The notes beneath the pieces are model-generated. The model saw only the letters and a list, made by a program, of their open reading frames with translations. It had not been told where the DNA came from and made no database searches. Shown piece by piece: positions 1-8,812 of a DNA stretch of 37,707 bases. This stretch comes from a virus. Numbering within the stretch: the stretch's first letter is position 1; every line of letters starts with the position of its first letter. A program made the position numbers and the translations under genes. The stretch lies in the IMG/VR virus record IMGVR_UViG_3300044697_000156, positions 1 to 37,707 of that record. One strand, given 5' to 3'.

Positions 1-156
1 GAAAACCCGGTGAAGATGATCACCAGCAGTCCGGCGATCCTCGGCTACGCGATCGACAACATCCGGGGCAAGCTCGACGACCTGCGCGCGCTCGGCTTCG
101 AAAACCCGGTGAAGATGATCACCAGCAGTCCGGCGATCCTCGGCTACGCGATCGAC
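1..156 (+). repeat. 99-bp tandem repeat (one full unit plus 57 bp of a second)
   Basis: Bases 1-57 and 100-156 are identical, giving a 99-bp period (33 codons). The match breaks immediately after the shared Ala-Ile-Asp codons, where unit 1 continues with Asn and unit 2 with Arg. Perfect identity at synonymous positions implies recent duplication or gene conversion. The window begins exactly at a unit boundary, so the array probably continues leftward. Confidence 0.9.
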
Positions 157-342
157 CGGCTGCGTCTCGTCGTCTCCATCGTCAATGCCTGCGCGGACGC
201 GCCGCCCTCTGCTTTCTCTTCGCTCGTCTACAAACGGCGAAGCCTGATCGAAGAGATCGCCGCCTCGAAACCTGCGTCGTGGGCCGACGTGCGCGCGGCG
301 CTCAGGGCCGCAAAAATAAAAAAAGAGGCTAGCGCCCCATGA
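1..342 (+). CDS. mTERF-like helical repeat protein, 3' end only (5'-partial)
   Basis: The frame is open from base 1, so the true start lies left of the window. The visible part has one complete 33-residue unit (bases 1-99) and 19 residues of a second (100-156), identical base for base over 57 bp, followed by a unique C-terminal cap of about 61 residues rich in Arg, Lys and Ala. The unit has the pattern of an mTERF motif (Pfam mTERF): a short helix ending in Ser-Ser-Pro, then Ile-Leu-Gly-Tyr, a second amphipathic helix, and a closing Leu-Gly-Phe. mTERF proteins are curved helical solenoids that bind nucleic acids in organelles; assigning that role here is inference. The stop overlaps the start of the cytosine methyltransferase by 4 bp (ATGA), suggesting translational coupling. 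Other helical-repeat solenoids remain possible. Confidence 0.75.
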   Translation, partial: ENPVKMITSSPAILGYAIDNIRGKLDDLRALGFENPVKMITSSPAILGYAIDRLRLVVSIVNACADAPPSAFSSLVYKRRSLIEEIAASKPASWADVRAALRAAKIKKEASAP

Positions 343-2381
343 CGTTCGACTCCCTGATCATCGACAATTTCGCGGGCGGAGGAGGGGCGTCGACCGGGAT
401 CGAGGCCGCGCTCGGGCGGCCGATCGACGTCGCGATCAATCACGATGCCGAGGCGGTCGCGATGCATCGCCTCAATCATCCGCGCACGTTCCATTATTGC
501 CAGGACGTCTGGGCCGTCGACCCGGTGGAGGTGGTGCGCGCGGCGTCGGCGCGGCGCGGCCATCCGGGAATCATGCTGCCGGTGCTGCTCGCCTGGTTCT
601 CGCCCGACTGCAAGCATTTTTCCAAGGCCAAGGGCGGCAAGCCGGTCGAGAAGGGAATCCGCGACCTCGCCTGGGTGGTCGTGAAATGGGCCAAGGCGGT
701 GCGCCCGCTCACGATCATGCTCGAGAATGTCGAGGAGTTCCAAAGCTGGGGCCCGCTGTTCGACGATCACCGGCCCGACCCGAAGCGCCGCGGCGAGACC
801 TTCGCGCTCTGGATCACCGAGTTACGCAAGCTCGGCTACCGGGTCGAGTTCCGCGAGCTGCGCGCGTGCGACTACGGCGCACCCACGATCCGCAAGCGCC
901 TGTTCCTGGTCGCGCGCTGCGACGGCGTACCGATCGCGTGGCCCGAGGCGACCCACGGCAAGCCCGACAGCCCGGGCGTGCTGAGCGGTACGCTCGCGCC
1001 CTGGCGCACTGCGGCCCAATGCATCGATTGGTCGATCCCATGTCCCTCGATCTTCGAGCGCGAGCGGCCGCTCGCCGAGGCGACCCATCGGCGCATCGCG
1101 CGCGGCATCCGGCGCTACGTGATCGAAAGGGTGCACCCGTTCATCGTGCCGATCACCCACACGGGCGATGAGCGGTGCCACGCGATCGACGAGCCCCTGC
1201 GCACCGTCACCGGGGCGCACCGCGGGGAGCACGCGTTGATCGTGCCCTCGGTCATGACCAACACCACCGGCCATCCCGGCGCCCCCACGGACGCGCCGTT
1301 GCCGACGATCGCGACGGGCGGTCACCACGCGCTGGTGGCACCGCACCTGGTCGGCGTCGGCGGGCGCGCAGGCCAATCACGCCCGCGCGGCGTCGACGAG
1401 CCGACCGCGACTCAAACCGCGAAGTACGACACGGCGCTCGTCGCACCGATCATTACGCGCGTCGACCAAGCGAGCGCGGCGGCGCGGAACGGCATTCAAC
1501 CGATCGACGATCCCTTGCGCACGGTGGACACGGCAGGCGGTCTCGCGATCGCGACGCCTTTCATCACCAAGTTCCGCGCCGGAGCGACGGGCTCGGGCGC
1601 CGACGAGCCGGTGCCGACGGTCACCGCCAACAGCTTCGTCAAACGCGCGGGCGGTGCTCCACCCCTCGGCCTGGTCGCGCCGGTGTTGGTGCCGCGCTAT
1701 GGCGAGCGCCCGACGCAGGATCCTCGCGCGCTGCCCGCCGACGGTCCGATGCCGACCGTGGTCCCGACCGGCAACGGCGCGTCCCTGGTCGCGGCGTTCC
1801 TCGCCAAGCACTACGGCGGCCACGAGACGCCCGGCGCGCCGCTCGAGAAGCCGGCCGACACGATCACCGCCAAGGATCACCATGCGCTGGTCGCGGCGAA
1901 TCTGATCAACCTCAAGGGCTCGGAGCGCGGCGGATGGGACGCGGCGAGCCCGAGCCCGACCCAATGCTCCGGCGGTTTCCACATCGCCGAGGTGCGCGCG
2001 TTCCTGATCAAATATTACGGCGCCGACGACCAGGCCCAAGACCTGCTCGACCCGATGCACACCCTGACCGCCAAGGCGCGCCTGGGGCTCGTGACCGTGC
2101 CGATGGTCGACGGCTCGACCCAGGAATACCAGATCGTCGATATCGGCATGCGCATGCTGAGCCCGCGCGAGCTGTTCCGCGCCCAAGGCTTCCCCGACAG
2201 CTACATCATCGATTTTCACTGGCACGGGCGCGACCCGTCGACCGGCCGCTTCGCGCGCCGGCGCATGACCAAGACCGCGCAAGTCAAAATGTGCGGCAAC
2301 TCGGTCTGCCCGCCCATGGCCGAGGCCCTGGTGCGCGCCAATCTCGTGCGCCGCGCCGAACAGGAAAGCGAGGTCGCGTGA
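339..2381 (+). CDS. DNA cytosine-C5 methyltransferase with repeat-rich target-recognition region
   Basis: Transfers a methyl group from AdoMet to C5 of cytosine in DNA. Visible motifs: motif I NFAGGGGAST near residues 10-19, the catalytic loop SPDCKHFSK with Cys91 (SPDC instead of the usual PPCQ), motif VI LENV near 128-131, the RKRLFLVA strand near 185-192, motif IX LSPRELFRAQGFP near 607-619 and motif X GNSVCPPMA near 653-661. Residues 265-585 hold about nine degenerate units of 32-40 residues with the pattern AP-hydrophobic, Gly-rich loop, DEPLxTVTA, HALV. The protein is 680 residues, long for a C5 methyltransferase, mostly because of these units. The start ATG overlaps the preceding stop and the end overlaps the next gene by GTGA. 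Likely role: protecting phage DNA from host restriction. Confidence 0.92.
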   Translation: MTFDSLIIDNFAGGGGASTGIEAALGRPIDVAINHDAEAVAMHRLNHPRTFHYCQDVWAVDPVEVVRAASARRGHPGIMLPVLLAWFSPDCKHFSKAKGGKPVEKGIRDLAWVVVKWAKAVRPLTIMLENVEEFQSWGPLFDDHRPDPKRRGETFALWITELRKLGYRVEFRELRACDYGAPTIRKRLFLVARCDGVPIAWPEATHGKPDSPGVLSGTLAPWRTAAQCIDWSIPCPSIFERERPLAEATHRRIARGIRRYVIERVHPFIVPITHTGDERCHAIDEPLRTVTGAHRGEHALIVPSVMTNTTGHPGAPTDAPLPTIATGGHHALVAPHLVGVGGRAGQSRPRGVDEPTATQTAKYDTALVAPIITRVDQASAAARNGIQPIDDPLRTVDTAGGLAIATPFITKFRAGATGSGADEPVPTVTANSFVKRAGGAPPLGLVAPVLVPRYGERPTQDPRALPADGPMPTVVPTGNGASLVAAFLAKHYGGHETPGAPLEKPADTITAKDHHALVAANLINLKGSERGGWDAASPSPTQCSGGFHIAEVRAFLIKYYGADDQAQDLLDPMHTLTAKARLGLVTVPMVDGSTQEYQIVDIGMRMLSPRELFRAQGFPDSYIIDFHWHGRDPSTGRFARRRMTKTAQVKMCGNSVCPPMAEALVRANLVRRAEQESEVA

Positions 2382-2599
2382 CCCAAGTCCAGCAAACCCA
2401 TCCGGGCATGGCCGGGATCGCGTTGCGCGGATCCGACGCGCACCTGCACGCGTTCCTAATCGCGAGCGCCGCGCGGGCGCGGCGCATGGGGCGTGCGCTC
2501 CAAAAACGCGGCTGCACCCTCGGCACGATCGCCCGGCTCGAGCGCATGGCCGAATTCTGCGAAACCGAGGCAGCCCTACTCGCGCGGGAGAGATCATGA
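2378..2599 (+). CDS. Small hypothetical protein (73 aa)
   Basis: The GTG start overlaps the methyltransferase stop (GTGA) and the stop overlaps the next ATG (ATGA), so it sits as a coupled link in the operon. The product is Ala/Arg-rich and basic in the middle (ASAARARRMGRALQKRG), with a predicted C-terminal helix holding Cys and several Glu. I do not recognise a family. Precise overlaps at both ends are the best evidence that it is translated. Confidence 0.6.
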   Translation: MTQVQQTHPGMAGIALRGSDAHLHAFLIASAARARRMGRALQKRGCTLGTIARLERMAEFCETEAALLARERS

Positions 2600-3696
2600 G
2601 CGATCGCTCGAAGATCGAATGGACCGACGCGAGCTGGAATCCGGTGAGGGCGTTCAAGCTCGCGAATCCCCTCGTGAGCGGCTGGCACTGTGAGCACGTC
2701 AGCGAGGGATGCCGCAACTGCTATGCCGAGGCGTTCAATCGGCGCCTTGGAACCGGGCTCGATTACGGGCGGCCGGAGCGCGCGCGCGTCGAGATTGAGC
2801 TGAGCTCGAGCACTCTAGGCGCGCCACTTCACTGGAAACGCCCGCGCAAGATTTTCGTCGGCTCGATGACCGACCTGTTCGGCGATTGGGTCGCCGACGA
2901 GATGCTCGACCGCATCTTCGCCGTGATGGCGCTGTGCCCGCAGCACAGCTTCCAGGTGCTCACCAAGCGCCCGGAGCGGATGAAGCGCTATATCGACGAC
3001 CTCTACGGCGGCAAGCGCAACGAGCTCCATGCTGGCGCCGAAATCCTGTCGGGGACGAAGGACCGGATGCTGCGGGCGCATGGCGCCGCGCTCGAGCGGA
3101 TGATCCAAACGGTCTCGGTTCGATCGGCGCCCCACAAGAACGTCTTGCTCGGCGTCTCGACCGAGGATCAGGCGACGGCCGATCGGCGCATCCCGATTCT
3201 GCTCAACACGCCGGCCGCAGTGCGCTTCCTCTCGGCCGAGCCGCTGCTCGGGCCGATCGACCTTCGCAGGAGTGCGTTCGTGCCGTGGATTCCGCACGCG
3301 GCGCGGCCCGCGCACAAGCCATCTCCGAACACATATCTCGATTGGGTGATCGTCGGCGGCGAAAGTGGGCGCGAGGCGCGCCCGATGCATCCCGATTGGG
3401 CGCGCGGGCTCCGGGACCAGTGCACCGCTGCCGGCGTCGCGTTCTTCTTCAAGCAGTGGGGCGAGTGGAGTCCTCACCGGCCGGTTGCCGGCGGTGATCT
3501 CGGCGGCGATGTTCGCGCTGGTCGCGTGAAGATCGTGCACCCGACCGGGCAATCGGACGTTGAAGTCAGCGACGCGACCGGCGGTCGAAACACGATTCCC
3601 GGTTCGCGCTACATGGCCCTCATCGGCAAGAAGGCAGCGGGCCGCGATCTCGACGGTGTCGAGCACAACGGATTCCCGGAGGTGCGCCATGCGTGA
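2596..3696 (+). CDS. Phage Gp37/Gp68 family protein (DUF5131)
   Basis: The N-terminus KIEWTDASWNPV followed by HCEHVSEGCRNCYAEAFNRR is the hallmark of the Gp37/Gp68 (DUF5131) family. Three cysteines in a C-x6-C-x2-C arrangement look like a metal or iron-sulphur ligand set, but are not the canonical CxxxCxxC of radical-SAM enzymes. Further family blocks are FVGSMTDLFGDWV, FQVLTKRPERM, LLGVSTEDQ, FLSAEPLLGPI and WVIVGGESG. Length (366 aa) is a little over the usual 240-330, because of an insert near residues 135-175. The biochemical function is unknown. The family is common in phages and often lies near DNA-modification genes, as here. ATG overlaps the previous stop. Confidence 0.88.
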   Translation: MSDRSKIEWTDASWNPVRAFKLANPLVSGWHCEHVSEGCRNCYAEAFNRRLGTGLDYGRPERARVEIELSSSTLGAPLHWKRPRKIFVGSMTDLFGDWVADEMLDRIFAVMALCPQHSFQVLTKRPERMKRYIDDLYGGKRNELHAGAEILSGTKDRMLRAHGAALERMIQTVSVRSAPHKNVLLGVSTEDQATADRRIPILLNTPAAVRFLSAEPLLGPIDLRRSAFVPWIPHAARPAHKPSPNTYLDWVIVGGESGREARPMHPDWARGLRDQCTAAGVAFFFKQWGEWSPHRPVAGGDLGGDVRAGRVKIVHPTGQSDVEVSDATGGRNTIPGSRYMALIGKKAAGRDLDGVEHNGFPEVRHA

Positions 3697-6000: not shown

Positions 6001-6540
6001 ATGTCCCGCGAAAAGCTGAGCAACCGGCGCCCCGGCAGCGAGACGCTCCCCTTCGAGTTCCAGGGGCACGCCTACCTGCTCTCGTATCTGATCGAGCAGG
6101 GGCGCGCGCGCGAATGCTTCTTGCGCCTTCAAAAGGCTGACGGCAGCCAGCTCTACCACCAGGCACACGACCTCGCGAAGATGGTCTCGCGCTTGTTGCA
6201 GCACGGCGATCGCCCGCTCGATCTCGGTCATACCTTCGAGCGCGCGCCCGCCCTCGATGGCCAGCCGGGCCGCCTTTTGCCGCTCACCCTTTTCGGCGCG
6301 GTGGTCGACCAGCTCGCGGCGCTCGAGATGGAGCATCGCATCGGGCGCCAACTGCCGCTCGCGCCGGAAGACGGCCGCTGCGACATCGAGGTCGCCTGGG
6401 TCGGCCATGATTGGCTGCCCCATTGGATCGCCCAGGGCTGGAGCGAGATTCCGCGCGAAGGGCGCCACAACGACGACCGGCCGATTTTCCGGCGCATCGG
6501 TCGCGTCCCGGCGGCGGCAGCGGGGGCGAAAGATGGGTGA
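6001..6540 (+). CDS. TSCPD-like phage protein, function unknown
   Basis: ATG follows a GAGAGG ribosome-binding site by 3 bases. The first ~100 residues resemble a family common in proteobacterial phages: basic NRRPGSET, then FEFQGHAY, a second strand ending GRARECFL, a helix AHDLAKMVSRLLQHG, and a final helix with LPLTLFGAVVDQL. In that family the fold resembles the TSCPD domain found at the C-terminus of some ribonucleotide reductases; the match here is distant. The second half (IEVAWVGHDWLPHWIAQGWSE) is unassigned. The end overlaps the MT-A70 gene by 8 bp. Confidence 0.6.
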   Translation: MSREKLSNRRPGSETLPFEFQGHAYLLSYLIEQGRARECFLRLQKADGSQLYHQAHDLAKMVSRLLQHGDRPLDLGHTFERAPALDGQPGRLLPLTLFGAVVDQLAALEMEHRIGRQLPLAPEDGRCDIEVAWVGHDWLPHWIAQGWSEIPREGRHNDDRPIFRRIGRVPAAAAGAKDG

Positions 6541-7165
6541 GCGTTTCGACGGGACCGCGCGCTCTTTCGGCGAATTCGCGTGCATGCGTCCTCACGGCGG
6601 CTATGGTGCGATCTACGCCGATCCGCCGTGGCGTTTCTTCAACTACTCGCCGAAGGGCGAGAAGAAGAATCCGGTCGCGCATTACGACTGTCTCACGCTC
6701 GACGACCTTCAAACGATACCCGTCGATCGGCTCGCGGCGAGGCATTGCGCGCTCTTCATGTGGGCGACGTTCCCGATGCTGCCTCAGGCACTTTCGGTCA
6801 TGGCCGCATGGGGCTTCGCCTTCAAGTCGGGGGGGGCTTGGGCGAAACGCTCAAGCACCGGCGGGAAATGGCATTTTGGCCCGGGCTATGTATTTCGCTC
6901 GGCGGCCGAGCTTTTCCTCGTCGGGACCCGCGGCGCGCCCCGCGTGCGCAACCACGCGGTGCGCAACCTGATCGTCACCGACTGCCCGCTCGAGGAGTTG
7001 ATCGTTGCGCCAGTGCGCGAGCATTCCCGCAAGCCAGACGCCGCCTACGAAATGATCGAGGCGCTATACGACGGGCCCTATGTCGAGCTTTTCAGCCGCG
7101 CCTCTAGGGCGGGCTGGAGCGCATGGGGCAATGAGGTCGGCAAATTCGACGGCGCAATGTCATGA
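6533..7165 (+). CDS. MT-A70 family adenine-N6 DNA methyltransferase
   Basis: Carries the MT-A70 catalytic motif DPPW in YADPPWRFFNY near residues 28-38, then ALFMWATFPMLPQAL, a GPGYVFRSAAELFLVGTRG strand and the terminal PVREHSRKPDAAYEMIE block. These place it in the MT-A70 group that methylates N6 of adenine; phage members act on DNA. 210 aa is a normal length. Start ATG at 6533 has a GGGG-rich ribosome-binding site and overlaps the preceding gene; the end overlaps the next ATG. Likely role: self-protection against restriction. Confidence 0.9.
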   Translation: MGERFDGTARSFGEFACMRPHGGYGAIYADPPWRFFNYSPKGEKKNPVAHYDCLTLDDLQTIPVDRLAARHCALFMWATFPMLPQALSVMAAWGFAFKSGGAWAKRSSTGGKWHFGPGYVFRSAAELFLVGTRGAPRVRNHAVRNLIVTDCPLEELIVAPVREHSRKPDAAYEMIEALYDGPYVELFSRASRAGWSAWGNEVGKFDGAMS

Positions 7166-8054: not shown

Positions 8055-8812
8055 GCCGTCCCTCGCTCACCGACGAATGGCTGACGCCGCGGCCGATTCT
8101 GGAGGCGCTGGGGCCGTTCGATCTCGACCCCTGCGCGTCGGTGGTGCGGCCTTGGCCGACCGCGGCGCGGCATTACACGATCGCCGACAACGGCCTCGCG
8201 CTGCCCTGGTTCGGGCGCGTCTGGCTCAACCCGCCTTACCGCAAGTGCATCGGCGCCTGGCTCGGCCGCATGGTGGCGCACGGCCGCGGCACGGCGCTGG
8301 TGTTCGCCAAGACCGACACGCGCTGGTTTTTCGATCATGTCTGGCGCGCGGCCTCGGGCGCACTGTTCCTCGAGGGGCGGCTCCAATTCCATTACATCGA
8401 CGGCACGACCACAGGCGACGCGCGGCGATCGTCGGTGCTGATCGCCTACGGGCACGAGGATTTTGACCGGCTCGCCGAATCCGGGATTTCGGGAGCGCTG
8501 GTGCCGCTCACGGGCGGGGGGCAGATGGTCGCGGTGCTGCGGCCAGCGTCTGATTTACATTTTGCGCCCTCGATTGAGGGATCAAAATGTAAAGCAGCCC
8601 CCGATCAAACCTGGCGCGATCTGCTCGCCGCGATCGCGCGCGACGCCGGCGCGCCGCTCCCCCTTGCGCTGGCTTACGTGCTCGTCGGCGATCATCCGAA
8701 GGCGCGCGGCAACCGGCATTGGCGCGAGAAGGTGCGCCAGACTTTGCAGGGCGCTCCGTTCCGCCGCATCGCATCCGCGACCTACGCCCTCGAGCTCGGG
8801 GGCGCGGGATGA
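8051..8812 (+). CDS. dam: Phage N6-adenine DNA methyltransferase (Dam type) with C-terminal extension
   Basis: The N-terminal TDEWLTPRPILEALGPFDLD followed by PCAS and, further on, VWLNPPYRKCIGAW is the signature of the phage DNA N-6-adenine-methyltransferase family; NPPY (residues 60-63) is the catalytic motif. The family core spans about 160 residues; this protein has 253. Between core and C-terminal helical region lies an unusual segment encoded by an AT-rich perfect palindrome (8554-8593; see that entry). ATG at 8051 keeps the operon's ATGA overlap pattern. Confidence 0.88.
   Translation: MSRPSLTDEWLTPRPILEALGPFDLDPCASVVRPWPTAARHYTIADNGLALPWFGRVWLNPPYRKCIGAWLGRMVAHGRGTALVFAKTDTRWFFDHVWRAASGALFLEGRLQFHYIDGTTTGDARRSSVLIAYGHEDFDRLAESGISGALVPLTGGGQMVAVLRPASDLHFAPSIEGSKCKAAPDQTWRDLLAAIARDAGAPLPLALAYVLVGDHPKARGNRHWREKVRQTLQGAPFRRIASATYALELGGAG
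8554..8593. repeat. 40-bp palindrome inside the dam-like gene
   Basis: TTTACATTTTG at 8554-8564 is exactly complementary to CAAAATGTAAA at 8583-8593. Inside, CCCTC (8567-8571) pairs with GAGGG (8576-8580) around a GATT loop, with one 2-base mismatch between the stems. The arms are AT-rich in otherwise GC-rich coding sequence. It is read in frame and encodes part of a linker. It could be a mobile palindromic element, a regulatory hairpin or a protein-binding site. Confidence 0.85.

What the first reader, a model, noticed from the sequence alone, without database searches (positions are those of the whole stretch)
1..342. Phage-borne mTERF-like repeat protein with base-identical 33-residue units
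The two visible units are identical over 57 bp and the array runs off the left edge. Near-perfect modular helical repeats that resemble a nucleic-acid-binding solenoid family (mTERF, best known from mitochondria and chloroplasts) in a phage, coupled by ATGA to a DNA methyltransferase, could be a programmable-type DNA or RNA binder that partners with modification. Identity of the units suggests recent expansion or concerted evolution.
Basis: partly seen in the sequence, partly recalled or inferred. Interest (0 to 1): 0.85.

Follow-up and report, generated by a model that had tools for sequence, protein, structure and literature searches.

The report
Phage tandem mTERF-like DNA-binding repeat protein
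A virus of bacteria carries a gene made of near-identical copies of the helical repeat used by mitochondrial mTERF proteins; relatives in other phages and in ultra-small bacteria suggest a modular, probably sequence-specific DNA-binding protein, a kind first described in bacteria only in 2024.

Summary
Bases 1-57 and 100-156 are identical, and they are the only repeated 30-mers in the contig. They encode the C-terminal end of a tandem 33-residue repeat protein cut by the contig edge. The second unit departs after 57 bp into a C-terminal cap, so only one whole unit lies in the window. The mTERF reading holds. The fragment alone is below Pfam's cut-off (17 bits), but a full-length phage relative scores E=7e-15 and Patescibacterial relatives reach 3e-35. 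The AF2 model of the phage relative matches mTERF structures best (Z 13.0 to 9.6). Units keep the mTERF motif P-x2-L-x6-I/L-x6-L. Phage units differ from one another almost only at position 10 (S/L) and positions 16-17. Relatives occur sporadically on unrelated phages and prophages, and as longer arrays in Gracilibacteria/Peregrinibacteria. Prokaryotic mTERF-like proteins (pTERF) that bind specific DNA were published in 2024 from bacterial MAGs; that paper does not mention phages. The most likely role is a sequence-specific dsDNA binder used for regulation or as a transcription roadblock. Partnership with the adjacent C5 methyltransferase is not supported, because no other relative has that neighbour. 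Verdict: new variant of a known kind.

The parts
1..99 (+). complete 33-residue mTERF-like unit ENPVKMITSSPAILGYAIDNIRGKLDDLRALGF (array continues off the left edge)
   Evidence: mTERF PF02536 17 bits on the fragment; 55 bits for full-length relative P0001
100..156 (+). start of the terminal unit, 57 bp identical to 1-57 (residues 1-19 of the unit)
157..342 (+). C-terminal cap (helices), aligned with the caps of the L002, L003 and L004 proteins, with stop codon
   Evidence: alignment A1; AF2 helices 51-63, 71-76, 80-89, 94-110
339..2381 (+). C5-cytosine DNA methyltransferase, 680 aa, translationally coupled (ATGA); neighbour only, not shown to be a functional part
   Evidence: PF00145 E=2.5e-24; phrog_116 E=3e-100
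2596..3696 (+). DUF5131 gene, context only; a homologue (46%) lies in the L002 phage but about 9 kb from its mTERF gene

Best explanation
The ORF is the C-terminal end of a phage-encoded tandem mTERF-repeat protein (pTERF-like): an N-cap, at least two (probably more) 33-residue units of helix (13 aa), helix (7 aa) and short 3-10-like helix (5 aa), and a C-cap, forming a superhelical solenoid. It most likely binds double-stranded DNA along the groove as MTERF1 and the published bacterial pTERFs do. The loop and 3-10 face of each unit (unit positions about 9-17 and 20) would read bases, and unit-to-unit differences at positions 10 and 16-17 would set specificity. Bound to a phage or host site it would act as a regulator or transcription roadblock (a terminator or repressor in the early or lysogeny region). 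Shown: repeat architecture, family, fold prediction, confinement of variation, presence on several phages and prophages. Inferred: DNA rather than RNA binding, base reading by those residues, regulatory role.
For: Pfam mTERF: 7e-15 for phage relative P0001, 3e-35 for G188, 1.3e-30 and 1.8e-30 for two Gracilibacteria-type (TGA=Gly) proteins and 4e-14 and 1e-10 for two more. Unit-shuffled arrays give no mTERF hit. A profile made only of prokaryotic units finds MTERF3 (5e-5) and MTERF1 (1e-4) among all PDB sequences. The AF2 model of P0001 (pLDDT 82) has its 19 best Foldseek hits all among mTERF-family chains, VIA Z 13.0 for MTERF3 and 11.6 for DNA-bound MTERF1 against 7.8 or less for TALEs. The mTERF signature (P8, hydrophobic at 11, 18, 25; PMC11417379) maps to P11, L14, I/L/V21 and L28 of the unit and is kept in nearly all 48 units. 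MTERF1 residues R202, F243 and R350 align to unit position 12 and R251 and Y288 to position 20; R202, R251 and R350 are direct base contacts. Differences between the full L002 units are only at positions 10, 16 and 17. Position 10 varies in three independent arrays (P about 0.003). Between two orthologous 8-unit arrays, positions 10, 15, 16, 22 and 23 keep their unit-specific residue (0.75-1.0 against 0.05-0.54 for non-orthologous units). Phage proteins are basic, pI 9.5-9.8. Published pTERF1 and pTERF2 bind distinct specific DNA motifs, Kd 1.87 nM for pTERF1 (PMC11417379).
Against: No binding data for this branch. The window fragment itself is below the Pfam cut-off, and its own fold search gives mTERFs on top but at E about 1. 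Some mTERFs bind RNA or ribosomes (MTERF4 and mitoribosomal mTERFs are among the hits). In phage units position 12 is almost always Ala, not a base-reading Arg. Near-identical units would imply a low-complexity target, or recent duplication with little selection for specificity. The G188 protein is not basic (pI 6.6).
Confidence: 0.6

Rival explanations
1. RNA-binding mTERF that recruits or positions an enzyme, in the manner of MTERF4 with the m5C methyltransferase NSUN4; in this phage the coupled C5 methyltransferase would be the partner.
For: MTERF4 (with NSUN4) is the top Foldseek hit; the genes overlap by ATGA in the window.
Against: The neighbour is a DNA, not RNA, cytosine methyltransferase (PF00145, phrog_116), and no other relative has one adjacent. 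ATGA overlaps are commonplace in phage operons (general knowledge).
Confidence: 0.12
2. Protein-protein interaction solenoid or scaffold (for example an anti-defence or host-takeover factor) that happens to share the mTERF fold.
For: Units are close to neutral; repeat solenoids often switch ligand (general knowledge); the family is rare and sporadic like many accessory genes.
Against: Characterised mTERFs and the two tested bacterial pTERFs bind nucleic acid (PMC11417379); phage versions are basic overall; no PADLOC family matches beyond a weak 0.0033 hit.
Confidence: 0.2
3. Assembly or neutral-duplication artefact: a recently duplicated stretch without function.
For: Contig ends exactly at the repeat; units differ by few bases.
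Against: Same architecture in four other phage-type loci and longer diverged arrays in Patescibacteria; open frames kept; unit differences are amino-acid changes at the same position in separate arrays.
Confidence: 0.05

Closest known systems
pTERF family (prokaryotic mTERF-like; Hu et al. 2024, PMC11417379)
   Same: Prokaryotic tandem mTERF-like repeats, 3-11 units, from metagenomic genomes, three helices per unit; pTERF1/2 bind specific dsDNA.
   Different: Published members come from bacterial MAGs, mostly Bacillota; the paper's main text has no mention of phages. pTERF1 is reported to lack the mTERF proline/leucine signature and has 9-18% identity to eukaryotic mTERFs; the units here keep the signature and relatives score up to E=3e-35 on Pfam mTERF.
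MTERF1/MTERF3/MTERF4 (Pfam PF02536, eukaryotic organelle factors)
   Same: Motif, three-helix unit, predicted superhelix; profile matches in both directions.
   Different: Eukaryotic units are diverged and interspersed through the protein; here they are head-to-tail, 33 residues without indels, and near-identical.
TALE / BurrH (BAT) repeats
   Same: Near-identical units of similar length with variation confined to few positions; second-tier fold match (Z up to 7.8).
   Different: No TAL_effector Pfam match; conserved mTERF Pro and 3-10-like helix; unit has three helical segments; structural similarity is clearly weaker than to mTERFs.

Membership tests
mTERF (PF02536) | Profile match above Pfam gathering score (23.1 bits) | tested here: inconclusive
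   Window fragment 17.0 bits, E=0.0029: below cut-off, but only about 1.6 units present. Relatives P0001 55.1, P0002 30.0, P0007 122, P0008 106, P0009 52.6, P0010 107, P0011 41.5 are above; P0003 21.8, P0004 22.9 and P0005 13.5 (short or truncated) are below.
mTERF (PF02536) | Motif: conserved Pro followed by hydrophobic residues at +3, +10, +17 (positions 8, 11, 18, 25) | tested here: met
   Unit P11, L14, I/L/V21, L28; phage 11/11 Pro and 11/11 Leu14, Patescibacteria 34/37 Pro; the window's complete unit has P, L, I, L.
mTERF (PF02536) | Unit of two alpha helices plus a 3-10 helix, stacked in a superhelix like MTERF1/3 | tested here: met
   AF2 of P0001: 13-7-5 residue helices per unit; best structural matches all mTERFs, Z 13.0-9.6. 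Prediction, not experiment. The window fragment's own model has the same order in its second unit but its matches have E about 1.
mTERF (PF02536) | Nucleic-acid binding | not testable with these tools
   needs EMSA/SELEX
pTERF (Hu et al. 2024) | Prokaryote-encoded tandem mTERF-like repeats | tested here: met
   4 units in L002, 6-10 units in complete Patescibacterial proteins
pTERF (Hu et al. 2024) | Sequence homology with pTERF1/2 | not testable with these tools
   sequences are in supplements/figures not held; the reported lack of the Pro/Leu signature in pTERF1 differs from the units here
TALE / BAT | TAL_effector profile match | tested here: not met
   no TAL_effector hit at E<=1; fold match Z 7.8 or lower against 13.0 for mTERF

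The most novel reading that the evidence does not exclude
Phages carry and exchange a modular, TALE-like but mTERF-based DNA reader whose specificity is set by one or two residues per 33-residue unit (positions 10 and 16-17), with units duplicated and shuffled by recombination so that targets can change quickly; the module was shared between Gracilibacteria/Peregrinibacteria and alphaproteobacterial phages.
Probability: 0.25. Interest if true: 0.85.

Novelty: new variant of a known kind. Interest (0 to 1): 0.62.

Why it matters
mTERF repeats were described as having no prokaryotic homologue until 2024 (PMC11417379). Finding canonical-signature mTERF arrays on several unrelated phages and in Gracilibacteria/Peregrinibacteria widens where the family could have come from. 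It also gives small (about 250 aa), near-identical-unit proteins in which a residue-to-base code could be read directly, because units differ at only one to three positions.

Tried and rejected
Phage records (50,697) with the window fragment and with P0001: no true relative; the one weak hit MT836174 (E=0.8) lies over a peroxiredoxin-like frame. Plasmids: none. Viral structure library BFVD: no phage mTERF, only a weak Megaviridae match. A degenerate-pattern scan of viral contigs gave 11 stretches, of which only the three contigs already known (L002, L003, L004) were real. Pfam mTERF hits in G286, G250 and G197 were ABC transporters and RuvA by their sequence, rejected. Most PHROG/NCBIfam hits of the repeat proteins had no stretch passing on its own and are repeat inflation. 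8vd6 'CAP REPEAT', a protein of 33-residue period, scores in these searches but was set aside as a periodicity match because the mTERF Pro is not aligned. Methyltransferase partnership as a family trait was considered and rejected. No defence-system family was found for the repeat protein.

Full report
What is in the window. Frame 1 is open from base 1 to the stop at 340-342 and reads ENPVKMITSSPAILGYAIDNIRGKLDDLRALGF-ENPVKMITSSPAILGYAIDRLRLVVSIVNACADAPPSAFSSLVYKRRSLIEEIAASKPASWADVRAALRAAKIKKEASAP. Bases 1-57 and 100-156 are identical, and these are the only repeated 30-mers in the 37.7-kb contig. The second unit leaves the repeat after 19 residues and runs into a C-terminal cap, so the identity is 57 bp and not a whole unit. 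The contig is a linear IMG/VR record with terminase, portal, contractile-sheath and tape-measure genes. It starts at the first base of the repeated stretch. Two of the four other phage-type contigs also stop inside their arrays (L003, L006), as does a Patescibacterial one (L074), so copy number cannot be taken from these assemblies.

Relatives. One scan of viral contigs and one of genome contigs gave three loci each. L002 is a full-length 246-aa protein with four units on a 50.7-kb phage contig. L003 is truncated on a 19.6-kb phage contig. L004 and L007 are the same alphaproteobacterial contig, 207 aa. L006 is the N-terminal part in a Pseudorhodoplanes MAG. L005 is a Peregrinibacteria MAG. HMM searches of about 1,900 genomes show how sporadic the family is. 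In alphaproteobacterial groups only the seed genomes hit: 1/398, 1/337, 1/297 and 1/249. In the class of the Peregrinibacteria genome 5 of 242 hit, the seed included, and one more hit is G188 in another class of the same phylum (1/86). The Patescibacterial proteins are longer (G188 10 units; G1114 6; G1194 and G1258 8 each; G1134 a truncated frame). They have more diverged units and a shared C-terminal end (RYxRGY or similar). Two are readable only with TGA=Gly (table 25), 17-18 TGA codons each, many at conserved unit glycines, which fits Gracilibacteria. No true relative was found in 50,697 phage records or 72,556 plasmids. The viral scans use exact conserved peptides and find close relatives only, so rarity is not proven there.

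Family. The window fragment alone scores 17 bits on Pfam mTERF, below the cut-off of 23.1. Longer relatives score clearly: P0001 55 bits (E=7e-15), G188 122 bits (3e-35), G1194 and G1258 106-107 bits. Arrays of shuffled units give no mTERF hit. In the other direction, a profile of prokaryotic units alone retrieves MTERF3 and MTERF1 from all PDB sequences at 5e-5 and 1e-4. The AF2 model of P0001 (pLDDT 82, pTM 0.68) shows helices of 13, 7 and 5 residues per unit. Its 19 best Foldseek matches are all mTERF-family chains, and VIA Z is 13.0 for MTERF3 and 11.6 for DNA-bound MTERF1, with TALE/BurrH next at 7.8 or less. The window fragment's own model ranks mTERFs first, but at E about 1. The described mTERF signature (Pro, then hydrophobic at +3, +10, +17) is P11, L14, I21, L28 in the unit.

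Where units differ. In L002 three full units differ at 1 to 5 of 99 bases with no synonymous change; the changes are S/L at position 10 and YA/LS at 16-17. L003 and L006 carry the same L-type (TCTCTC) and S-type (TCGAGC) unit pair, and L005 also has S then L at position 10. Three independent arrays sharing a variable position by chance has P about 0.003. In Patescibacterial arrays positions 9, 10, 12 and 16 and the helix positions 22, 23, 26, 29 and 30 are among the most variable. Between the orthologous arrays of G1194 and G1258 the unit-specific residues at 10, 15, 16, 22 and 23 are kept. In an alignment with MTERF1, R202, F243 and R350 fall on unit position 12 and R251 and Y288 on position 20; R202, R251 and R350 are direct base contacts (PMC4705650). 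The residue numbers were assigned from the F243A, Y288A and F322A mutant chains. That alignment is weak, so it is a lead only. Position 12 in phage units is nearly always Ala.

Context. The gene is followed by a C5 methyltransferase in the window (ATGA), but not in relatives: L002 has an uncharacterised 113-aa ORF and MT-A70 upstream and DUF7146 downstream, L003 an integrase, L004 HIRAN and an ERF-family gene. The phages differ in structural genes: the window is sheath-bearing, and only a weak tape-measure match, DUF5131, MT-A70 and small ORFs are shared with the L002 phage. So the repeat gene appears to travel between phages. L003 and L006 share a tRNA 3'-end fragment with homologous flanks next to the integrase or the gene, and in L005 the gene ends about 10 bp from the 3' end of a tRNA-Met gene. 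Both fit integration sites; this is inference.

What it does. Hu et al. 2024 (PMC11417379) described pTERF1/2, bacterial tandem mTERF-like proteins that bind specific dsDNA. That, together with MTERF1, makes a sequence-specific DNA-binding regulator or roadblock the most likely function; this step is inference. RNA or ribosome binding and a protein-binding scaffold remain possible. The finding is therefore a new, phage-borne, signature-keeping branch of a kind first reported in 2024.

Noticed in passing
window 339-2381: The C5 methyltransferase is 680 aa with conserved ends and a long middle (about aa 265-560) made of degenerate units of the form 'DEPxxTxT...HxLVxP', i.e. a second internally repetitive protein next to the mTERF gene.
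   Followed up: no
L075:2337-3692 and L076:2666-4015: Two Patescibacterial mTERF-repeat genes read through 17-18 in-frame TGA codons, many at conserved unit glycines, an independent sign of the TGA=Gly code of Gracilibacteria/Absconditabacteria.
   Followed up: yes
L044:6075-8213 (-): Near the G188 mTERF gene, beside a ribosomal-protein region, lies a 712-aa protein made of about 23-residue units like 'LKLPEIVGGSLYLNGLTSAEG'.
   Followed up: no
L006:7680-7740, L003:2150-2220: Shared tRNA 3'-end fragment (GGGGCAGCAGGATTyGAACCTGC) with homologous flanking bases beside the mTERF gene or integrase, a probable attachment site; no complete tRNA is called there.
   Followed up: partly
L005:55-887: Peregrinibacteria mTERF gene ends about 10 bp from the 3' end of a tRNA-Met gene and lies at the contig edge, as expected of an integrated element's end.
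   Followed up: partly
window 2596-3696, 6257-7165, 8117-8812: The window's early region holds DUF5131 plus at least two more DNA-methyltransferase-like genes (phrog_359 MT-A70 type, phrog_111) besides the C5 enzyme.
   Followed up: partly
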